Positions 5,888-64,000 of a stretch of DNA of 64,000 nucleotides are shown piece after piece (within the stretch, counting starts at the first letter, position 1; every line of letters starts with the position of its first letter). Source of the DNA: Arion vulgaris (Eukaryota; Mollusca; Gastropoda; Stylommatophora; Arionidae). Under the pieces are notes generated by a model. It had not been told where the DNA came from, did no database searches, and saw nothing but the letters and a program-made list of their open reading frames with translations. The stretch lies in the NCBI GenBank assembly GCA_020796225.1, contig CM036761.1, forward strand, positions 40,298,428 through 40,362,427, read 5' to 3'. Made by a program: the position numbers and the translations under genes.

Positions 5888-6005
5888 CAGCGTGTTCGTA
5901 GCGCGTTGGACAACGGTGACAGGCCCCTGTGAGTGCTGTTCAACTCCGCGGGCTGGCAGAAAAGCCACAGGTTCTCCAGATTTATGGTGTTCGTGGCATA
6001 TCGGT
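5888..6005 (+). mobile_element. tRNA-derived SINE, family SA (partial)
   Basis: Has an A-box-like GTAGCGCGTTGG and a B-box-like GTTCAACTCCGCGG, then GCTGGCAGAAAAGCCACAGG. The seven SA copies in the window allow mutual recognition. Here the 3' part, including the CTTCTGGATCGG end, is lost after GGTGTTCGTGGCA. Confidence 0.75.
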
Positions 6006-8180: not shown

Positions 8181-9610
8181 AAAACAGTAGACTCAACGCT
8201 CTGGATGATGTTGATGACGTTGACGATGTCTTCAACAGAGAAAGTCGTCAATTTTATCGATTTGGTCGGAGTTTCTTACCACAAGAAAACAATGAAGACG
8301 ATTTATACCTAGTTGATTCAATGCAGTTTACTGCTTCTCCCAAAGACTATATACCATACAGTCTTGATGAAAATATTTTACTTAGACATCCTCGACAGTT
8401 TTACCGTTTCGGTAGAAATCAACCACTTTCTAAAAGATTTCTTAGGTTTGGTCGTTCAAGACCTCTTAATGTTGAGGATTATAATCTAAACTCGGGTTTG
8501 GAATCAAATCAACCGTTGTACAGAAAACGAAGATCAGTCAAAAGTGATAGGAAAGAATCAACAGAGATTTTACATCGCGATTTACGGTCTGTTGACACTA
8601 ATACTCAGACGGAAAAACAGAACAATAAAGAAACAGATTACAATATAAAAGTTACTCAAACACAAACAGAAGAGGGCAAGAATAGTTTGAGTAAATACGA
8701 AGAAAATGTAAACGAAGATAACGATATTGATAAGAGGTTTATGAGGTTTGGTAAACGTTTCATGAGGTTTGGTAGAGGAGATGATGAAGATGAACCATAC
8801 GATAAGAGGTTTATGAGGTTTGGGAAAAAATCAGATAGCGACCAAGATTTTGATAAAAGGTTTATGAGGTTTGGGAAAAAATCAGATAGCGACCAAGATT
8901 TTGATAAAAGGTTTATGAGGTTCGGTAAAAGATTTATGAGGTTTGGCAGAGGAGGCGAGGGTGAAAAAGAAAAGAGGTTTATGAGGTTTGGTAGAGGAAA
9001 TGAAGAGGATGAAAACAACGAGAAACGGTTTATGAGATTTGGAAAGAGTTTAGATAATGATGAAGAATTTGATAAAAGGTTTATGAGGTTTGGTAAGAGA
9101 TTTATGAGGTTTGGAAGATCGGGTGACGGGGAACACGAAAAGAGGTTTATGAGGTTTGGTAGAGGAAATGAAGAAGATGAAAACAACGAGAAAAGGTTTA
9201 TGAGATTTGGAAAAAGTTTAGATAACAATGAAGAATTTGATAAAAGGTTTATGAGATTTGGAAAAAGTTTAGATAACAATGAAGAATTTGATAAAAGGTT
9301 TATGAGGTTCGGTAAGAGATTTATGAGATTTGGAAAACGAAACGATGTTGAAAATGAAAAGAGGTTCATGAGATTTGGTAGAGGAAACGAAGAAAATGAA
9401 GATAACGAAAAACGATTTATGAGATTCGGTAAAAGTGTAGACAACGACGATGAAAAGAGGTTTATGAGATTTGGCAAACGTTTTATGAGGTTCGGGAAGC
9501 GGTTTATGAGGTTCGGGCGCCAAGATCAAGACAACCATGATCAACTTCTCAAGACGGGCAACAACAGTGAAGACAGTGGCGTACCTCAGCTTGACACAAA
9601 AAGTAGATGA
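8181..9610 (+). CDS. FMRFa: FMRFamide neuropeptide precursor, exon II (FMRFamide-encoding terminal exon)
   Basis: Encodes the secreted precursor of FMRFamide, a molluscan transmitter/modulator acting on GPCRs and the FMRFamide-gated sodium channel. The exon opens after TTTTCTATTTTAG; its first two bases complete a split codon, then 475 codons and TGA. In order: two QFYRFG-R peptides (exon residues 23-27 and 72-76), one FLRFG-R (86-89), a SEEPLY-like spacer (92-113) before RKRR, an acidic region, then 20 FMRFG units (186 to about 447) separated by KR, R or K cleavage sites and acidic spacers. G supplies the C-terminal amide. The signal peptide is absent, so an upstream leader exon is required. 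The ATG at 8321 is internal, because the frame is open and meaningful upstream of it. Layout matches Lymnaea exon II; the species is not determined. Confidence 0.95.
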
Positions 9611-12759: not shown

Positions 12760-13380
12760 TAAGGTAACATTAATTACATAATATGTTATATCAATAATAA
12801 TTATTGTTATCTTTATTTGAGAGTTTCCTTCATTATTGTCAAATAATCGATCAAATAGATCAAAGGAATATACAAAGATATTATGAAGAATGCTAGCAAT
12901 ATTTATGAACAACAAACATTTTGTAACACCCAAACATAACCAAATATCAAACATAATGTGGAGTCTTGTTATATTGTTACCTTATCTTACAGTACTATAG
13001 AGTCTGTGCGTTTTGTCAAATACCATATTCTATATATTTGTTAAATGCAATCTTCACACCAAATGTATGGGTGTCCAGCATTGAGTGTATATTGTCTTAA
13101 TGATGCATTCTGCTAAATGTGTTCTTTGTTGTCTCTTTATTATTCTCTTCTCAATTGTATCGTTATCTTCATCTTGTTCTCTTACTCTCAACTTTTAACA
13201 ACAATATAGTTTTCTGCTGAATGGCATATGTAAAAAAATATGTATTTGTCTTAATCTTATTTCTTGCAACCCTTTCATCTTCACTTCTAACTTTTCATAT
13301 AATAATATTGTTTGCTAAATTTCGAGTTCGTACCATGTCGAGAAGTAGGATAAATAAAAGGAACAGAAACATATAAATTC
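12760..13380. other. Intronic AT-rich stretch, no recognised feature
   Basis: I find no coding similarity, repeat copy or splice-flanked ORF here. Confidence 0.5.
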
Positions 13381-14062: not shown

Positions 14063-14258
14063 CCGATCCAGAAACACTTGAGCTTTCAGCTCTTCGGCTC
14101 GGTGCCATGGGCATCGTAACCCTTCGGTTCGGTGCAACGAACACCGTAAATCTGAAGAACTTGTGGCTTTTCTGCCAGCCCACGGAATTGAACCGCACTT
14201 AAAGGGGGCTTGTCGTCCGTCGTCCAACGTGCTACGAACACGCTGGGCAGGCGGGCTA
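14063..14258 (-). mobile_element. tRNA-derived SINE, family SA
   Basis: Full-length copy in reverse: on the minus strand it runs from the CAGCGTGTTCGTAGC head through the B-box-like GGTTCAATTCCGTGG to CTTCTGGATCGG and an A-rich tail (the T run at 14046-14062). Confidence 0.85.
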
Positions 14259-14367: not shown

Positions 14368-14578
14368 GCCCGTCTGCCAGCGTGTTCGTAGCGCGTTGGA
14401 CTACGGGTGACTATCCCTCTGTGGGTGCGGGCTCAATTCCGCGGATGGCAGAAAAAGCCACAGATTCCTCAGATTTACGGTGTTCGTGGCACCGAACCGA
14501 AGGGTTACGATGTCCATGGCACGAGCCGAAGAGCTGAAAAGCTCAAGTGCTTCTGGATCGGGGAAAAAAAAAATGAAG
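14368..14578 (+). mobile_element. tRNA-derived SINE, family SA
   Basis: Full-length copy: A-box-like GTAGCGCGTTGG, B-box-like GCTCAATTCCGCGG, then CCGAAGAGCTGAAAAGCTC, CTTCTGGATCGGGG and a poly-A tail. It faces the copy at 14063-14258, 110 bp away. Confidence 0.85.
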
Positions 14579-15066: not shown

Positions 15067-15511
15067 GTGTCAACTATAACAATGAATATCTAAGGTTCGG
15101 ACGAGACAACCTTAATGGTTATATGAGGTTTGGACGAAGTGATGAACCCAACTTTGCATACGACAAGGGAAACAACCCTCCAATTTCGTTTTCCAGACAG
15201 GATCTCTTTCAAAGAATCAGACGACAAGACTCGGATACATTTCCAAGAATCGGTCGACGAAATTCACATGTCTCCACCGACATTTATATTCCTGACCCAG
15301 AACCAATATTGAGAATCGGTCGTCGAGAACAGGAGCCTGTTCTAATAACGGACCATGCCACGCAATATTTGAGGTTAAGAAAGGGTGAAACACCGCTCCT
15401 GAGGTTGTGGAGGGCTAATAGCTTTCTGGGACATGACGCCCAAGACACTGTTCTACGACTTGAAGAAAGTGGCGACAGGTTTCTGGAACCTCAAACTTCA
15501 ACACTAATTGG
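15067..15511 (+). CDS. FMRFa: FMRFamide-gene exon III (extended Y(L/M)RFamide and decayed RFamide units)
   Basis: Acceptor TATATTCTGCAG at 15066, then two bases finishing a split codon exactly as in exon II, 147 codons and two bases before GTAAGA (phase 2). Peptides visible: NYNNEYLRFG-R, DNLNGYMRFG-R, a linker (SDEPNFAYDK...), QDSDTFPRIG-RR and a longer peptide ending PEPILRIG-RR. Later units no longer fit an amidated peptide: TQYLRLRKG, TPLLRLWR, DTVLRLEE. In Lymnaea the corresponding exon encodes xDPFLRFamide heptapeptides; none is present here. Reading through the donor would stop at once (GGG TAA). Expected in the alternative, type-2 mRNA that omits exon II. Confidence is high for coding, moderate for the exact ends. 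Confidence 0.9.
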
Positions 15512-17280: not shown

Positions 17281-17490
17281 TTCACAAGATTATGAGCAAA
17301 TGGCTGATATTAATACAAGAAAAAAGCGTTCAGTCAGCGCACATGCAGAAGACACCACCTTGCAGGATCTCCTGGACAAAAGTAGGTCGGAGATGCCTGA
17401 TGCTGGGCTTGGTGTCAAGGAGGAAGACAGCAGTGACCACCTATATAGACAACCTATGAGAGAAACTCGGGGCAACAATGCTTACATGAG
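17281..17490 (+). CDS. FMRFa: FMRFamide-gene exon IV
   Basis: Acceptor TTTACTAAACAG at 17280, one base completing a glycine codon from exon III, 69 codons, then AG before the donor GTTTGT at 17491 (phase 2). It encodes a short linker, RKKRSV (dibasic site), an acidic spacer (AHAEDTTLQDLLDKSRSEMP...EEDSSDHLY), and ends GNNAYMR. Splicing to exon V supplies FGKR, producing GNNAYMRFamide after cleavage at ETR. Without splicing the frame reads MRFVDFN-stop, so the split motif itself argues for the intron. The ATG at 17300 is not a start. The exon is small but phase-consistent on both sides. Confidence 0.88.
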
Positions 17491-21243: not shown

Positions 21244-21437
21244 CCGATCCAGAAGCACTTGAGCTTTTAGCTCTTCGGCTCAGGGGCCATGGACATCGTA
21301 ATCTTTCGGTTCGGTGCCACGAACACCATAAATCTGGAGAACCTGGGAATTTTCTACCAGCCCGCTGAATTGAACCGCACTCACAGAGAGCTTGTCACCC
21401 GTCGTCCAACGCGTTACGAACACGCTGGGCAGGCGGG
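21244..21437 (-). mobile_element. tRNA-derived SINE, family SA
   Basis: Reverse copy: CCGATCCAGAAGCACTTGAG at the left (3' end of the element) through to GTTACGAACACGCTGGGCAG (head). It sits about 150 bp upstream of the exon V acceptor cluster. Confidence 0.85.
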
Positions 21438-21560
21438 CATGAAGACTCTATAGAGAAGGTTATAGTTAGATCGAAGTTCTGCAAATGACACGATACGTCT
21501 CGTGTATGATGTGTTGTAAATTAGTGTATGTGTTGTATTTTGGTTTGTTTGTATATATGT

Positions 21561-21716
21561 TAAAATAATAATTAAATAATCAACTATGTTATCTCATTCT
21601 ACTTTGTTTCAGATTTGGAAAGAGAAATTAATCAACTATGTTCTCATATTCTACTATGTTTCAGATTTGGAAAGAGAAATTAATCAACTATGTTCTCATA
21701 TTCTACTATGTTTCAG
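21561..21716 (+). promoter_or_regulatory. Triplicated 3' splice-site region of exon V
   Basis: A 52-bp segment containing a pyrimidine-rich tract, GTTTCAG and ATTTGGAAAGAGA is present three times, with exonic starts at 21613, 21665 and 21717. All three acceptors give R-FGKR when joined to exon IV. Acceptors 1 and 2 then read Asn-stop (AAT TAA); only acceptor 3 opens the full exon V frame. Confidence 0.85.
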
Positions 21717-21870
21717 ATTTGGAAAGAGAACTGACTTGCAAGAAGAAGATAACAGCAACTATGACAATGACAAGGAATTTCAACCGTCTGTCTCAAACGA
21801 AAACGACAAAAGAAACAACCAATACATGCGTTTTGGCAGAACACCTCAACAGGATTCAGTTGAAAACTAA
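21717..21870 (+). CDS. FMRFa: FMRFamide-gene exon V (final exon of the alternative precursor)
   Basis: Acceptor ACTATGTTTCAG at 21716; the first base A joins exon IV AG to give Arg, then FGKR. 51 codons including TAA. After the FGKR that ends the exon IV peptide comes an acidic spacer (TDLQEEDNSNYDNDKEF...), a KR site, NNQYMRFG-R (yielding NNQYMRFamide) and a nine-residue tail TPQQDSVEN. The frame also extends upstream as an artificial ORF because of the triplicated acceptor. No convincing nearby poly(A) signal; AATAAA occurs at 22604-22609, beyond a LINE insertion, so the 3' end is uncertain. Confidence 0.9.
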
Positions 21871-21974: not shown

Positions 21975-22195
21975 TAAACTATATAAATATGTAATATTAT
22001 ATTTACCTGCAAAAATCCAAGTGTTTATTCTGTAACAACAAGACCACACTATATAAATATGTAATATTATATTTACCTGCAAAATCAAGTGTTTATTCTC
22101 TAACAACTAGACCACACTATATAAAATATGTAATATTATATTTACCTGCAAAATCCAAGTGTTCATCCTGTAACAACAAGACCACACTATATTAA
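21975..22195. repeat. About 69-bp tandem repeat, 3 copies, in exon V 3' flank
   Basis: ACTATATAAATATGTAATAT ... CAAGTGTTTATTCTGTAACA ... GACCAC repeats at about 21978, 22048 and 22116. If transcribed it lies in the 3' UTR. Confidence 0.85.
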
Positions 22196-22202
22196 AACTG
22201 TA

Positions 22203-22560
22203 ATAATAATAATAATAATTTCTCTCGTACAGTTATGCGTTACATAGGGCATGCAAGCAATTTCTCAATACCGCTCTATCCTAAGGCAACTCGCTCAATC
22301 TCCTCTATGGAACTGACACCGATATTTCTTGCCTCTCTCAGTAAAGTTCGTTTCAGGGTTTCCGTAGGTCATCCTCTCTTTCTTGAACCCTTTGCATCCC
22401 ACTGCAATGCCTGCTTTGGTATTCGTTGATTATATCTCCTCAACGTGTGTCCAGCATATCTCCATCTTCTCTTTCTTATAACAGTTGTCACTAGTGGTTG
22501 ACCAGACATTTCTCTAATTTCATTACCTCTCCTGAATTCGTTCCATTTTATATAAAACTA
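22203..22560 (-). mobile_element. LINE 3' end, family LB
   Basis: Minus strand encodes RGNEIREMSGQPLVT-like codons, then KAGIAVGCKGFKKER and LTEARNIGVSSIEEIERVA, followed by ACGCATAACTG and an (ATT)n tail. It points away from the + strand copy that begins at 22640. Confidence 0.75.
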
Positions 22561-31599: not shown

Positions 31600-32640
31600 T
31601 GAATATCTATAGACCAAGAAATGGCATTTGATAGAGTAAACAGGAGTAAATTATAGGCGATCCTTGAAGAATATTGCGTCCAGGGACAACTATTGGGTAA
31701 TATCATGGCCTTATATCAAGGTAGCCAGAGTACAGTAAGAACAACAGAAGGAATGACCGACTGGTTCTCCATTACATCAGGTGTTAGACAAGGTTGTGTC
31801 CTCTCACCACTACTCTTTATTCCATATATGGATAAAATAATTCAAGAGTCAAATTGAGATAATGAGGAAACAAATGAACTGCTTTTTGCAGATGATCAGT
31901 GACTGATACATCAAAGTGAACAAGATCTACAACATCATATTGACACCTTGAACAAAAGTTGTATAAATCATGACATGAAAATCAACAACACTAAAACAGA
32001 AATAATGAATATGGGAAGAAAACATAATAAACTAGACATCCATGTCAATGGCACTAAAATAAACCAAGTGAAAGAATTCAAATACTTAGGAAGCATATTC
32101 ACAGAAGACGGAAGACTAGATAGAGAGATAGAGGCTAGAGTGCAAAAAACAAATGCTGTAACCTACCAGCCAGTCCCATTGTTATGGCACCCAAAAATAT
32201 CCCTGACAGCTAAGCAACAGATGATCAACAGCATTTTCATACCTACTTTGTATTACCAGAGCCAAACATGGACAATGAGCAAAACGCAGTCGAAAAAAAT
32301 AACTACATGTGAAATGCAGTGCCTGCGAAAAGTTACCAACAACAGCATAAGACAGAAAGTTGGCACAGAACCTTGCTTGAAATACATTGAGAAAAAGAGA
32401 ATAAAGTGATTTGGCCACTTAATAAGAATGCATCCAAACTCCACAGTATACAGTCTTCTACAACAGAACATCAGGAAAGAAGGAGAGAGGAAGACCACGA
32501 AAACGATGGTTAGATGACATAGCAAAATCCTGTCAAAGAGCAAAATAACAATCACCCAAGTCACCAGAACAGCGCAAGACAAAAGCAGAAATCCACGACT
32601 CCGGAACAAAACCCCTCTAACAGTGTGACGACACTGGGCA
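31600..32640 (+). mobile_element. Non-LTR retrotransposon reverse transcriptase (RTE-like), degraded
   Basis: Largest RT remnant. In order: QGSQSTVRTTEGMTDWF, SGVRQGCVLSPLLF (RT block with the GC-LSP signature), ELLFADDQ (FADD catalytic box), MKINNTKTEIMNMGRK, FKYLGSIFTEDGRLDREIEA, IFIPTLYYQSQTWTM and CEMQCLRKVTNNSIRQ. Stops lie before and after FADD (QESN-stop and DDQ-stop), and a TGA breaks KRIK-FGHLIRM. The 153-residue ORF 31948-32409 is only the C-terminal half. Inactive; no 5' half. Confidence 0.88.
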
Positions 32641-43665: not shown

Positions 43666-44074
43666 TTCTGTCCCAAAACAAGCCGACCCGCTTGCGGGCA
43701 ACTTCACGCGAGCACGTGAGCGTATGACCATATTTGGAAGTATTTCGAAATACATTCACAACGGTTGTCACGAGCTGGTTTCTTGTCCCATTTCTGGCAC
43801 AGCGGAAGCTTTTTTTTTAAAATGTGTTCGTGAGTGACTGGTGCGTAAGCATGGCTGCTAAAGTGTGTGCAAGTGTGTAAGACCGATTGTCATGTGTATG
43901 CAAGCGTGTCATTCATGATGGCTACGTGTGTAGTGTAATGCGGCAATATGTGTGTTGTGTATGTGTATGTGTGATTATGTGTATGTCTGTATGTGTTTGT
44001 GTGCATGTACACATAAATGGTTGAATGCAGGCGTGTAAATTTATCAGTATGTGAATATTTATCCATTTTGTTGT

Positions 44075-44079
44075 GTATG

Positions 44080-44113
<34 letters not shown>

Positions 44114-44395
44114 TGTATGTGTGTATGTATGTATGTATGTATGTGTATGTATGTGTGTATGTATGTATGTATGTATGTGTGTATGTATGTATGTGTGTGT
44201 GTATGTATGTATGTGTGTGTATGTATGTATGTTGTGTATGTATGTTGTGTATGTATGTATGTATGTATGTATGTATGTATGTATGTATGTATGTGTATGT
44301 ATGTATGTATGTATGTATGTATGTATGTATGTATGTATGTATGTATGTGTATGTTTTGTATGATTTGTATATGTATGTATGTATGTATGTGTGTG
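44075..44395. repeat. (TATG)n microsatellite
   Basis: More than 300 bp of GTATGTATGTATGT with occasional GTGT and TTG interruptions. Reads as Met-Tyr-Val-Cys in all frames. Preceded by GT-rich sequence from 43860. Confidence 0.97.
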
Positions 44396-44399
44396 ATCA

Positions 44400-45645
44400 T
44401 TGCCAAATATTGGCTGTACTGAAAATGCATCAGGATGTGCAGCAGCTGCATGAAGGGATGCACGCCAGAGTGCAGGACCAAGGCGAGCTATCAGAGCCTT
44501 TTCCTGTCCTGAATGGAGTCAAACAAGGCTGTGTGATTGCACCAACTCTGTTTAGCATTATGTTTTCTGCCATGCTGACAGATGCATTCAGAGATGGTAA
44601 CATAGGTGTCAACATCAAGTATCGTACAGATGGAAAACTCTTCAATCCAAGGAGACTTCATGCAAAAACAAAAGTAAAGTCTGATACCATCAGAGATCTC
44701 CTATTTGCTGACGACTGCGCCCTCACTGCCAACACTGAGGCAGATCTGCAGACTAGCATGAACAGATTCTCACAAGCCTGCTCCAACTTTGGTCTTACCA
44801 TCAATACCGAGAAATCTGAAGTCATGTACCAACCAGCTCCTGGAAAAGTATATGCCCAACCAAATATTACAACAAGATGCAAGAAACTGAAAGTAGTGGA
44901 TAGATTTACTTATCTTGGAAGCACACTGTCCCAAAATGTCACCATAGATGATGAAATAAATAAGAATCTTTAAAGCTAGCAGCACCCTTTTGCAGACTAC
45001 ATAGAAATGTCTGGCACAGATGTGGTATTGGCCAAGCCACAAAACTGAAGGTAGATCGAGCTGTCGTGCTCCCAGTCCTTCTTCACGCATGCGAAACTTG
45101 GACTGTATATCAGAGACACGCAAAGAAGCTAAACCACTTTCACACAGTCTGCCTTAGGAAAATAATGAACATCAAATGGCAGGATATGATCCCAGATACA
45201 GAGGTCCTAAAAAGAGCTGCTCTACCCAGAATCTACACAATCTTGATGCAGTCCCAAACAAGATGGGCAGGACATGTGGCTCGAATGCTCAGAATGCAGA
45301 ATACCCAAACGACTTTTTATGGTGAGCTGCAAAGTGGTAAACGCTCACAGGGAGGCCAGAAAAAGCGATTCAAAGATACACTCAAGAACTCGATGAAATC
45401 TTTTGGCATAGATGTCAACAACTGGGAGAATGCTGCTCAATACAGATCAGCCTGGCGCACACTTCTTCGACACGGTTCCTCGGCCTGCGAGGCAGATAGA
45501 ACAGCACGGATGGAGCAAAGACGTCAAAACAGAAAGGCAGTAAAACTTCCCACAAGTGCAAGTATACCTTGCCCACACTGTACAAGAACATTTCAAGCCC
45601 ATATCGGGCTCACTAGTCATCTATGCACACACAGACAAACATAGA
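44400..45645 (+). mobile_element. LINE reverse transcriptase with C-terminal C2H2 finger (family LF), 5'-truncated
   Basis: Best-preserved LINE. Frame 1 (to 44973): VLNGVKQGCVIAPTLFSIMF (RT block with GC--AP-LF), IRDLLFADDCALTANTEADL (FADD catalytic box), FGLTINTEKSEVMYQP, VVDRFTYLGSTLS. After a frameshift near 44975, frame 2 (45066-45644): VLLHACETWTVYQRH, MQSQTRWAGHVARMLRMQNT, KRFKDTLKNSMKSFGIDVNN and a terminal finger PCPHCTRTFQAHIGLTSH then LCTHRQT-stop. The N-terminal endonuclease and first RT blocks are missing; the element begins at the (TATG)n tract. A single frameshift suggests a fairly recent insertion. Confidence 0.92.
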
Positions 45646-46394: not shown

Positions 46395-46590
46395 CCAGAT
46401 CCAGAAGCACTTAAGCTCTTCGGCTCGGTGCCATAGACATCGAAACCCTTCGGTTCAGTGCCACAAACACCGTAAAACTGGAGAACCTGTGGCTTTTCTG
46501 CCAGCCCGTGGAATTGAACCGCACTCGCAGGGAGGGGCCGTCACCCGTCTTCCAACGCGCTACGAACACGCTGGACAAAGCGGACAAACA
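46395..46590 (-). mobile_element. tRNA-derived SINE, family SA
   Basis: Poly-T at 46386-46395, then CAGATCCAGAAGCACTTAAG, through TGGAATTGAACCGCACTC (B box in reverse) to ACGCGCTACGAACACGCTGG. Confidence 0.85.
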
Positions 46591-49578: not shown

Positions 49579-49768
49579 TTTTCGATCCAGAAGCACTTCA
49601 GCTTTCAGCTCTTCGGCTCGGTGCTATGGACATCGTAACCCTCCGGTTCGGTGCCACGAGCACCGTAAATCTGGAGAACCTGCGACTTTTCTGCCAGCCC
49701 GCGGTATTGAACCGCACTCACAGGGGCTTGTCACCCGTCATCCAACGTGCTACGAACACGGTGGACAG
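49579..49768 (-). mobile_element. tRNA-derived SINE, family SA
   Basis: TTTCGATCCAGAAGCACTTC, CGGTATTGAACCGCACTCAC, ACGTGCTACGAACACG. 49770-50335 is not recognised. Confidence 0.85.
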
Positions 49769-57775: not shown

Positions 57776-57777
57776 CC

Positions 57778-57968
57778 CCAGGTGTTCGTAGCGCGTTGGA
57801 CTGCCGGTGACTAGCCTCTGTGAGTGCGGTTTCAATTCCGCGGCTGGCAGAAAAGTCACAGGTTCCCCAGATTCACGGTGTTCGTGGCACTGAACTGAAG
57901 GGTTACGATGTCCAAGGCACCTAGCCGAAGAACTGAAAGCTCAAGTGCTTCTGGATCGGGAAAAAAAA
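57778..57968 (+). mobile_element. tRNA-derived SINE, family SA
   Basis: GTGTTCGTAGCGCGTTGGAC, GCGGTTTCAATTCCGCGGCT, GTGCTTCTGGATCGGG plus poly-A. Inserted immediately after the SD SINE. Confidence 0.88.
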
Positions 57969-59924: not shown

Positions 59925-62900
59925 ATGCATGATGCTGAATTTCTGGAAGAAAATCAAGATGATGATTACTAAATGGAAGAAAATAAGATCATGATACTAA
60001 ATGAGTCAAATAGTTGATCAATTACAAATAAGACAAACAGATGATGTCTAAATGAAAGACAAATAGATGATGATTACTAAAGAGAAGACAAAAAGATGAT
60101 GATACTAAATGAAGACAAATAAGTTATATTATTAAATGGAAGACAAAATAGATGACGATTACTAAATGGAAGACAAATAGGACTAATGATTACTAAATGA
60201 AAGACAAATAAGAATGATATTATAATGGAAGACAATAAGATTGATATTACAAAATGAAGACAAATAAGATGATTACTAAATGGAAGACAAATAAGATGAT
60301 TGATTACTAAATGAAGACAAATAAGATGATGATTACTAATTGGAAACAAATAAGATGATGATTACTAAATGGAAGACAAATAAGATTATGATTACTAAAT
60401 GGAAGACAAATAAGATGATGATTACTAAATGGAAGACCAATAAGATGATGATTACTAAATGGAAGACAAATAAGATGATGATTACTAAATGGAAGACAAA
60501 TAAGATGATGATTACTAAATGGAAGACAAATAAGATGATGATTACTAAATGGAAGACAAATAAGATAATGATTACTAAATGAAAGACAAATAAGATGATG
60601 ATTACTAAATTGAAGACAAATAAGATGATGATTACTAAATGGAAGACAAATAAGATGATGATTACTAAATGGAAGACAAATAAGATGATGATTACTAAAT
60701 GGAAGACAAATAAGATGATGATTACTAAATGGAAGACAAATAAGATGATGATTACTAAATGGAAGACCAATAAGATGATGATTACTAAATGGAAGACAAA
60801 TAAGATGATGATTACTAAATGGAAGACAAATAAGATGATGATTACTAAATGGAAGACAAATAAGATGATGATTACTAAATGGAAGACAAATAAGATGATG
60901 ATTACTAAATGGAAGACAAATAAGATGATGATTACTAAATGAAAGACAAATAAGATGATGATTACTAAATGGAAGACAAATAAGATGATGATTACTAAAT
61001 GGAAGACAAATAAGATGATGATTACTAAATGGAAGACAAATAAGATGATGATTACTAAATTGAAGACAAATAAGATGATGATTACTAAATGGAAGACAAA
61101 TAAGATGATGATTACTAAATGGAAGACAAATAAGATGATGATTACTAAATTGAAGACAAATAAGATGATGATTACTAAATGAAAGACAAATAAGATGATG
61201 ATTACTAAATGGAAGACAAATAAGATGATGATTACTAAATGGAAGACAAATAAGATGATGATTACTAAATGGAAGACAAATAAGATGATGATTACTAAAT
61301 TGAAGACAAATAAGATGATGATTACTAAATGGAAGACAAATAAGATGATGATTACTAAATGGAAGACAAATAAGATGATGATTACTAAATGGAAGACAAA
61401 TAAGATAATGATTACTAAATGAAAGACAAATAAGATGATGATTACTAAATGGAAGACAAATAAGATGATGATTACTAAATGGAAGACAAATAAGATGATG
61501 ATTACTAAATTGAAGACAAATAAGATGATGATTACTAAATGAAAGACAAATAAGATGATGATTACTAAATGGAAGACAAATAAGATGATGATTACTAAAT
61601 GGAAGACAAATAAGATGATGATTACTAAATGGAAGACAAATAAGATGATGATTACTAAATGGAAGACAAATAAGATATGATTACTAAATGAAGACAAATA
61701 AGATGATGATTACTAAATGGAAGACAAATAAGATGATGATTACTAAATGAAAGACAAATAAGATGATGATTACTAAATGGAAGACAAATAAGATGATGAT
61801 TACTAAATGGAAGACAAATAAGATGATGATTACTAAATGGAAGACAAATAAGATGATGATTACTAAATGGAAGACAAATAAGATGATGATTACTAAATGG
61901 AAGACAAATAAGATGATGATTACTAAATGGAAGACAAATAAGATAATGATTACTAAATGGAAGACAAATAAGATGATGATTACTAAATGGAAGACAAATA
62001 AGATGATGATTACTAAATGGAAGACAAATAAGATGATGATTACTAAATGGAAGACAAATAAGATGATGATTACTAAATGGAAGACAAATAAGATGATGAT
62101 TACTAAATGAAAACAAATAAGATGATGATTACTAAATGGAAGACAAATAAGATGATTGATTACTAAATGGAAGACAAATAAGATGATGATTACTAAATGG
62201 AAGACAAATAAGATGATGATTACTAAATGAAAGACAAATAAGATGATGATTACTAAATTGAAGACAAATAAGATGATGATTACTAAATGGAAGACAAATA
62301 AGATGATGATTACTAAATGGAAGACAAATAAGATGATGATTACTAAATGGAAGACAAATAAGATGATGATTACTAAATGAAGACAAATAAGATGATGATA
62401 CTAAATGGAAGACAAATAAGATGATGATTACTAAATGGAAGACAAATAAGATTATGATTACTAAATGGAAGACAAATAAGATGATTGATTACTAAATGAA
62501 AGACAAATAAGATGATTGATTACTAAATGGAAGACAAATAAGATGATGATTACTAAATGAAAGACAAATAAGATGATGATTACTAAATGGAAGACAAATA
62601 AGATGATTACTAAATGAAAGACAAATAAGATGATGATTACTAAATGGAAGACAAATAAGATGATGATTACTAAATGGAAGACAAATAAGATGATGATTAC
62701 TAAATTGAAGACAAATAAGATGATGATTACTAAATGAAAGACAAATAAGATGATGATTACTAAATGGAAGACAAATAAGATGATGATTACTAAATTGAAG
62801 ACAAATAAGATGATGATTACTAAATGGAAGACAAATAAGATTATGATTACTAAATGGAAGACAAATAAGATGATGATTACTAAATGGAAGACAAATAAGA

Positions 62901-64000
62901 TGATGATTACTAAATGAAAGACAAATAAGATGATGATTACTAAATGGAAGACAAATAAGATGATGATTACTAAATGGAAGACAAATAAGATGATGATTAC
63001 TAAATGGAAGACAAATAAGATGATGATTACTAAATTGAAGACAAATAAGATGATGATTACTAAATGGAAGACAAATAAGATGATGATTACTAAATGGAAG
63101 ACAAATAAGATGATGATTACTAAATTGAAGACAAATAAGATGATGATTACTAAATGGAAGACAAATAAGATGATGATTACTAAATGGAAGACAAATAAGA
63201 TGATGATTACTAAATGGAAGACAAATAAGATGATTGATTACTAAATGAAAGACAAATAAGATGATTGATTACTAAATGGAAGACAAATAAGATGATTGAT
63301 TACTAAATGGAAGACAAATAAGATGATGATTACTAAATTGAAGACAAATAAGATGATGATTACTAAATGGAAGACAAATAAGATGATGATTACTAAATGA
63401 AAGACAAATAAGATGATGATTACTAAATGGAAGACAAATAAGATGATGATTACTAAATGGAAGACAAATAAGATGATGATTACTAAATGGAAGACAAATA
63501 AGATGATAATTACTAAATGGAAGACAAATAAGATGATGATTACTAAATGAAAGACAAATAATATGATGATGATTACTAAATGGAAGACAAATAAGATGAT
63601 GATTACTAAATGGAAGACAAATAAGATGATGATTACTAAATGGAAGACAAATAAGATGATGATTACTAAATGAAAGACAAATAAGATGATGATTACTAAA
63701 TGGAAGACAAATAAGATGATGATTACTAAATGAAAGACAAATAAGATGATGATTACTAAATGGAAGACAAATAAGATAATGATTACTAAATGAAAGACAA
63801 ATAAGATGATGATTACTAAATGGAAGACAAATAAGATGATGATTACTAAATGGAAGACAAATAAGATGATGATTACTAAATTGAAGACAAATAAGATGAT
63901 GATTACTAAATGGAAGACAAATAAGATGATGATTACTAAATGGAAGACAAATAAGATTATGATTACTAAATGGAAGACAAATAAGATGATGATTACTAAA
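59925..64000. repeat. 30-bp satellite (ATGATTACTAAATGGAAGAC + AAATAAGATG), more than 4 kb
   Basis: About 135 units to the window edge, so the array continues beyond it. Variants: GGAAGAC (commonest), GAAAGAC, TGAAGAC, and GATAATG/GATTATG. The left edge (59925-60330) and 62100-62640 carry scattered indels; elsewhere the 30-bp phase is kept. 30 is a multiple of 3, so both strands give long ORFs (up to 453 residues of FHLVIIILFV units) that I regard as artefacts. Confidence 0.98.

What the first reader, a model, noticed from the sequence alone, without database searches (positions are those of the whole stretch)
21561..21870. Three tandem, equivalent 3' splice sites at FMRFamide exon V, two leading to an immediate stop
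A 52-bp unit holding the pyrimidine tract, CAG and the first 13 exonic bases (ATTTGGAAAGAGA) occurs three times. Joined to exon IV (ends AG), each acceptor restores R-FGKR, so each completes the amidation and cleavage signal of GNNAYMRFamide. Acceptors 1 and 2 then read Asn-stop; only acceptor 3 adds the acidic spacer and NNQYMRFamide. The duplication may create a neuropeptide switch: same penultimate peptide, last peptide present or absent. 52 is not a multiple of 3, so the upstream copies cannot read through.
Basis: partly seen in the sequence, partly recalled or inferred. Interest (0 to 1): 0.78.

Follow-up and report, generated by a model that had tools for sequence, protein, structure and literature searches.

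The report
Tripled splice acceptor in snail neuropeptide gene
In a snail gene for FMRFamide-like nerve peptides, a short repeat has tripled the place where the last coding segment is joined on, so the message may end with or without its last peptide; the sequence shows the possibility, but no RNA was available to show that it is used or regulated.

Summary
A 52-bp unit covering the end of intron 4 and the first bases of exon V of a gastropod FMRFamide gene stands three times at 21574-21730, giving acceptors at 21613, 21665 and 21717. All three complete GNNAYMRF-GKR. The first two then read Asn-stop; only the third adds the spacer and NNQYMRFamide.

The last YMRFamide is old: it is kept in the 10 of 10 panpulmonate type-2 precursors aligned, so acceptor 3 probably still matters.

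A designed switch is not shown. Minisatellites cover 23.1% of the first 59.9 kb, so a repeat on at least one of six splice sites is likely by chance (P about 0.79). The acceptors are not quite equivalent: the first has the better pyrimidine tract but lacks the branch-point-like motif of copies 2 and 3. The type-2 peptides of exon III are partly decayed, perhaps because this is a second gene copy, so disruption may be tolerated.

Best reading: a minisatellite-type duplication made competing acceptors and probably a mixture of full and shortened precursors, without proof of regulation. No RNA, long reads or relatives' DNA could be examined.

The parts
8181..9610 (+). Exon II, coding part (type-1 transcript): FMRFamide tetrapeptide exon, acceptor CTATTTTAG|AA, phase 1, stop TGA 9608-9610; 3' end of the transcript unknown
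   Evidence: Pfam FARP E 1.8e-19; Bradybaena P0004 E 4.5e-106
15067..15511 (+). Exon III (type-2 transcript), acceptor TTCTGCAG|GT, donor ATTGG|GTAAGA, phase 1 in, 2 out
   Evidence: Pfam FARP E 0.00027; aligns with Candidula P0001 and Arion P0002
17281..17490 (+). Exon IV (type-2), ends inside the Arg codon of GNNAYM-R|F; donor AG|GTTTGT
21574..21626 (+). Repeat copy 1 with acceptor 1 (exon start 21613); reads F-G-K-R-N-stop
21626..21678 (+). Repeat copy 2 with acceptor 2 (exon start 21665); reads F-G-K-R-N-stop
21678..21730 (+). Repeat copy 3 with acceptor 3 (exon start 21717); identical to copy 2
21717..21870 (+). Full exon V, coding part: completes GNNAYMRF-GKR, acidic spacer, KR-NNQYMRF-GR, stop
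   Evidence: last YMRFG invariant in 11 of 11 aligned rows
21742..21747 (+). GAAGAA purine-rich (enhancer-like) motif, 25 bases into exon V from acceptor 3; GGAAAGAGAA stands once in each copy (21617, 21669, 21721)
   Evidence: an enhancer role is inference

Best explanation
A 52-bp segment spanning the branch-point region, pyrimidine tract, AG and first 14 exonic bases of the last exon of a snail FMRFamide gene was tandemly duplicated to three copies, by the same minisatellite-type process that fills this window. Because each copy carries the short elements of a 3' splice site, the donor at 17490 has three competing acceptors. Shown: the sequence, the phases and the three reading frames. Inferred: splicing uses more than one of them, giving (a) a shortened type-2 precursor ending GNNAYMRF-GKR-N and (b) the full precursor with NNQYMRFamide. 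Both stops lie in the last exon, so the short mRNA should escape junction-dependent decay (general knowledge). The choice is made once: joining at acceptor 1 or 2 gives AG|ATTTGG, with no GT at the junction for re-splicing. I think the outcome is a mixture set by acceptor strength, not a dedicated regulated switch, and tolerated because the type-2 product of this gene is under relaxed constraint.
For: Three copies with intact CAG and pyrimidine tract. With a simple acceptor matrix written from recalled frequencies, acceptor 1 scores 9.85 bits (99.0th percentile of 3656 + strand AGs) and acceptors 2 and 3 score 7.04 (95.4th), level with exon III (7.06) and above exon IV (3.95). AG-free stretches of 86, 38 and 38 bases lie upstream. 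The last YMRFG is invariant in 11 of 11 rows (10 relatives and the window), and the exon V frame here is intact, so acceptor 3 is probably still used. Minisatellites cover 23.1% of bases 1-59900; P(at least 1 of 6 splice sites hit) is 0.79 under free, independent placement. Exon III shows decay: 4 RFG and 2 RIG[KR] in the window precursor against 6 to 17 RFG in the 10 aligned relatives (one of these, Cornu, also has 2 RIG[KR]).
Against: No RNA evidence at all. Two other acceptor-like AGs in intron 4 (20163 at 13.6 bits, 21284 at 10.6) score above acceptor 1 with the same matrix, so the matrix does not identify used sites. All 5 differences falling outside 13 exonic bases has P = 0.22, so selection on the duplicates is not shown. 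Relaxed constraint is judged from peptide counts only; no DNA of relatives was available for a rate test. Exon boundaries of relatives were not seen (proteins only).
Confidence: 0.52

Rival explanations
1. Only acceptor 3 is used in practice; the two upstream copies are silent, because exon V is defined by purine-rich motifs next to acceptor 3.
For: GAAGAA lies 25 bases from acceptor 3 but 77 and 129 from the others; last peptide kept in 10 of 10 aligned relatives; copy 1 lacks the TTAAT branch-point-like motif at -34 that copies 2 and 3 have.
Against: Copy 2 is identical to copy 3 over 52 bases, GGAAAGAGAA included; acceptor 1 has the best score of the three; from a branch point the first AG downstream is normally taken (rule for distant branch points, PMC1431707, passages read).
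Confidence: 0.2
2. Acceptor 1 takes nearly all splicing, so this gene has effectively lost the NNQYMRFamide peptide and exon V is becoming untranslated sequence.
For: First AG met, more pyrimidines at -20 to -5 (13 of 16 against 11 of 16) and best score; type-2 exon III peptides already decayed; a possible second gene copy could cover the function.
Against: Exon V frame, KR cleavage site and GR amidation signal are intact and match relatives; the TTAAT motif is missing in copy 1.
Confidence: 0.16
3. A regulated neuropeptide switch: neurons choose between precursors with and without the last peptide.
For: Same penultimate peptide in both forms, a stop one codon after the cleavage site, stops in the last exon; the type-1 and type-2 mRNAs of this gene are expressed mainly in different ganglia in Helix aspersa (PMC4208409, passages read).
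Against: No RNA and no comparative DNA; chance placement of a minisatellite is likely; the AAT-TAA stop is the duplicated branch-point region read in frame, so it needs no selection (sequence).
Confidence: 0.1
4. Assembly artefact: extra repeat copies added during assembly.
For: Copies 2 and 3 are identical.
Against: Copy 1 differs from copies 2 and 3 at 5 of 52 bases, so at least two copies are likely real; the whole array is only 157 bp.
Confidence: 0.05

Closest known systems
Panpulmonate FMRFamide gene, type-2 (mostly heptapeptide) transcript: Lymnaea exons E1-E3-E4-E5 and its Helix and Limax counterparts
   Same: Separate type-1 and type-2 coding exons with matching entry phase, and a C-terminal pair of YMRFamide peptides.
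   Different: No tripled last-exon acceptor is mentioned in the passages read (PMC4208409; PMC6085721); exon III here has few intact RFamide signals.
Tandem genomic duplication across an acceptor in potato RdRp (PMC4974935, abstract and results section read)
   Same: The duplicated segment crosses the intron-exon boundary and copies branch site, pyrimidine tract, AG and exonic enhancer-like bases.
   Different: There a cryptic GTAAG donor made a new intron, confirmed by reads; here the four GTs between acceptors all read TAT|GTT.., so only alternative acceptors result; three copies, not two.
Tandem (NAGNAG-type) alternative acceptors (PMC1449888, PMC2279118: search listing and start of abstract only)
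   Same: Competing nearby acceptors that change the protein.
   Different: 52-base spacing with a separate pyrimidine tract each; two choices lead to a stop rather than to a small insertion.

Membership tests
Panpulmonate FMRFamide gene | FMRFamide-related peptide repeats with amidation and dibasic signals | tested here: met
   Pfam FARP on exon II (E 1.8e-19) and exon III (E 0.00027), both above cut-off; no FARP match on the exon IV or exon V frame alone
Panpulmonate FMRFamide gene | Exons II and III enter in the same phase so either can follow exon I | tested here: met
   Both open in phase 1 with one placeholder base
Panpulmonate FMRFamide gene | Signal-peptide exon I upstream | tested here: inconclusive
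   Not found with five relatives' N-terminal pieces (best E 0.055, on the - strand); it may lie before base 1
Panpulmonate FMRFamide gene | Two C-terminal YMRFamide-type peptides | tested here: met
   MRFG (penultimate) and YMRFG (last) invariant in 11 of 11 rows
[quoted passage not shown]
   Only TAT|GTTCTC and TAT|GTTTCA between acceptors, after an in-frame TAA
Alternative tandem 3' splice sites | Two or more acceptors used with one donor in RNA | not testable with these tools
   No RNA reads available
Minisatellite array | Head-to-tail copies of a 10-100 bp unit | tested here: met
   TRF period 52, 3.0 copies, score 280

The most novel reading that the evidence does not exclude
Copy number of a minisatellite that spans an intron-exon boundary sets, per species or per individual, the ratio of a neuropeptide precursor with and without its last peptide, so that repeat mutation is a fast-evolving dial on the peptide mix of snail neurons.
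Probability: 0.12. Interest if true: 0.75.

Novelty: new member of a known kind. Interest (0 to 1): 0.42.

Why it matters
If more than one acceptor is used, this is a clean natural case in which tandem duplication of a complete 3' splice site creates alternative precursors without a new intron, with a readout (one amidated peptide present or absent) that RNA-seq and mass spectrometry can measure. It would also test how first-AG position, pyrimidine tract, branch point and exonic enhancers compete when nearly identical acceptors stand in a row. If only one is used, it is an ordinary minisatellite expansion in a repeat-rich snail genome.

Tried and rejected
Tried: exon I by translated comparison with five relatives' N-terminal pieces: 5 of 5 gave only short chance-level matches (best E 0.055, - strand). 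A signal-peptide-like frame at 13221 was considered as an alternative first exon for type 2; it has a weak phase-1 donor (GAA|GTAGGA, exon end 13344) and reads in frame into exon III, but I saw no likeness to relatives' exon I and did not follow it further. The window's own genome: six identical requests did not complete, so a second gene copy in the same genome was not looked for. The Lymnaea gene-structure paper (PMC6577258) is not held, so exon boundaries in Lymnaea were not compared.

Rejected: a new intron between copies (no fitting donor, stop in frame); chance similarity; selection on the exonic bases (P 0.22).

Results against the second-gene-copy reading: the type-1 tree does not resolve the window's place (2 of 7 inner branches starred), its highest identity there is 47% with Bulinus, a freshwater snail, and FaRP-A sits on a long branch. 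The exon IV-V tree joins window, Candidula and Bradybaena (99/96) but has 4 of 8 inner branches open and only 124 columns.

Literature: ten paper searches were answered. None of the listed papers showed, in title or start of abstract, a tripled acceptor in an FMRFamide gene; the longest result lists were capped (for example 20 of 251 papers, 12 of 94), and the library holds open-licence papers only.

Full report
What is there. The window carries most of a gastropod FMRFamide gene on the + strand. Exon II (coding 8181-9610) encodes many FMRFamide copies (Pfam FARP, E 1.8e-19). Exons III (15067-15511), IV (17281-17490) and V (coding 21717-21870) encode the type-2 precursor. Exons II and III both enter in phase 1, as needed for the known choice of two mRNAs after a shared first exon (Lymnaea, Helix and Haliotis; PMC4208409, passages read). 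Exon I was not found in the window.

The repeat. Three copies of a 52-bp unit lie at 21574-21730. Each holds a branch-point region, a pyrimidine tract, CAG and the first 14 bases of exon V. Copies 2 and 3 are identical over 52 bases; copy 1 differs at 5, all intronic. Joined to exon IV, acceptors 1 and 2 give ..GNNAYMRFGKRN-stop and acceptor 3 gives ..GNNAYMRFGKRTDLQEEDNSNYDNDKEFQPSVSNENDKRNNQYMRFGRTPQQDSVEN-stop.

Is the last peptide real? Homology searches found type-2 precursors in Candidula, Arion, Cornu (HF-4), Ambigolimax, Deroceras, Bradybaena, Onchidium, Lymnaea, Biomphalaria and Physella. I aligned these 10 named panpulmonates, out of 131 hits (120 listed) that also include other gastropods, insects and nematodes. 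The penultimate MRFG and the last YMRFG are invariant in 11 of 11 rows, the window included. Of five further gastropod or unnamed precursors fetched but not aligned (P0061, P0081, P0084, P0086, P0087), four have two or more MRFG signals in the last 130 residues and one (P0081, Elysia crispata) has one only. The terminal peptide is thus old, which argues that acceptor 3 is still used or was until recently.

Which gene copy? On exon IV-V the window groups with Candidula and Bradybaena (99/96). Cornu falls outside that group although, from general knowledge, it is closer to Candidula as an animal. Candidula P0001 and Bradybaena P0004 share a similar N-terminus (M..KI.ETVLSLT), unlike Cornu, Arion or Ambigolimax type II. 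One reading is two FMRFamide genes in land snails, as could follow from the stylommatophoran genome duplication (PMC12328838, abstract and one section read). This is inference: the rest of that tree is poorly resolved, the type-1 tree does not resolve the window at all and gives Bulinus as its highest identity (47%), and the window's genome could not be searched. In the window precursor the peptide region of exon III is eroded: 4 RFG and 2 RIG[KR] signals against 6 to 17 RFG in the 10 relatives (P0080, with 6, starts at an internal Met and is probably partial; P0077 also has 2 RIG[KR]). Relaxed constraint would make a disruptive duplication tolerable.

How strong are the acceptors? With a simple matrix written from recalled frequencies, acceptor 1 scores 9.85 bits and acceptors 2 and 3 score 7.04; exon III scores 7.06 and exon IV 3.95. 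Two unrelated AGs in intron 4 (20163, 21284) score higher than acceptor 1, so the score is only a guide. Copies 2 and 3 hold a TTAAT branch-point-like motif at -34 that copy 1 lacks; a CTCAT stands at -17 or -19 in all three. A GAAGAA motif lies nearest to acceptor 3, while GGAAAGAGAA is in every copy. From a distant branch point the first AG downstream is normally taken (PMC1431707, passages read). These facts pull in different directions, and the outcome cannot be predicted from sequence.

Is it more than accident? As a repeat it is far beyond chance: the next best place in the window has 23 of 52 mismatches. As a coincidence with a splice site it is not: outside exon II, 42 clusters of tandem repeats (period 10 or more, this one included) cover 23.1% of bases 1-59900, so at least one of six splice sites would be hit with probability 0.79 if placement were free and independent; one of six is hit. 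The in-frame TAA is the duplicated branch-point region itself and needs no selection. All five differences falling outside the exonic part has P = 0.22 and is not evidence for constraint.

Other mechanisms. The closest precedent I saw is the potato RdRp duplication across an acceptor, which made a new intron with a recruited GTAAG donor. Here the four GTs between acceptors read TAT|GTTCTC or TAT|GTTTCA and come after an in-frame TAA, so the intron-gain model does not apply. Joining at acceptor 1 or 2 leaves no GT at the junction, so re-splicing to acceptor 3 is not expected.

Verdict. A genuine triplication of a complete 3' splice site in the last intron of a neuropeptide gene. Most likely it yields a mixture of full and shortened type-2 precursors, without evidence that the ratio is regulated. 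Odds: mixture 0.52; silent upstream copies 0.20; acceptor 1 dominant with loss of the peptide 0.16; regulated switch 0.10; artefact in copy number 0.05. The last can hold together with the others, so the figures need not sum to one.

Noticed in passing
21978-22205: A second array (70 bp x 3.3) lies just after the exon V stop, in the presumed 3' UTR, with TATAAA at 21982, 22052 and 22120 and ATTAAA at 22191; its repeat number could affect the 3' end of the mRNA.
   Followed up: partly
15067-15511: Peptide signals of exon III look decayed (for example YLRLRKGE and LLRLWRA; two RIG[KR]), suggesting relaxed constraint on the type-2 product.
   Followed up: partly
13221-13344: A signal-peptide-like frame (MAYVKKYVFVLILFLATLSSS..) with a weak phase-1 donor (GAA|GTAGGA) reads in frame into exon III; a possible alternative first exon for the type-2 transcript, or chance.
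   Followed up: partly
P0004 and P0080 (Bradybaena), P0001 (Candidula), P0022 (Ambigolimax FaRP-A): Land snails may hold two FMRFamide genes; Bradybaena models BsWGS_08047 and 08048, on contigs of the same length, may be the type-1 and type-2 halves of one gene, and slug FaRP-A may belong to the second copy (FaRP-A's place is not resolved).
   Followed up: partly
21270-21456; also 14089-14256, 49608-49768, 14368-14534 (-), 46415-46577, 57777-57931 (-), 5888-5998 (-): A dispersed, SINE-like element has six further copies in the window at 84-88% identity and ends about 155 bases before the first acceptor (not classified).
   Followed up: partly
31903-32409 and 44017-44973: Reverse-transcriptase fragments of LINE-like elements (Pfam RVT_1, E 1.8e-5, below cut-off, and 1.3e-14).
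   Followed up: partly
59929-64000: A 30-bp unit array of about 4 kb runs to the end of the window with strong strand asymmetry (GC skew 0.465, AT skew 0.358 in 60001-64000).
   Followed up: no
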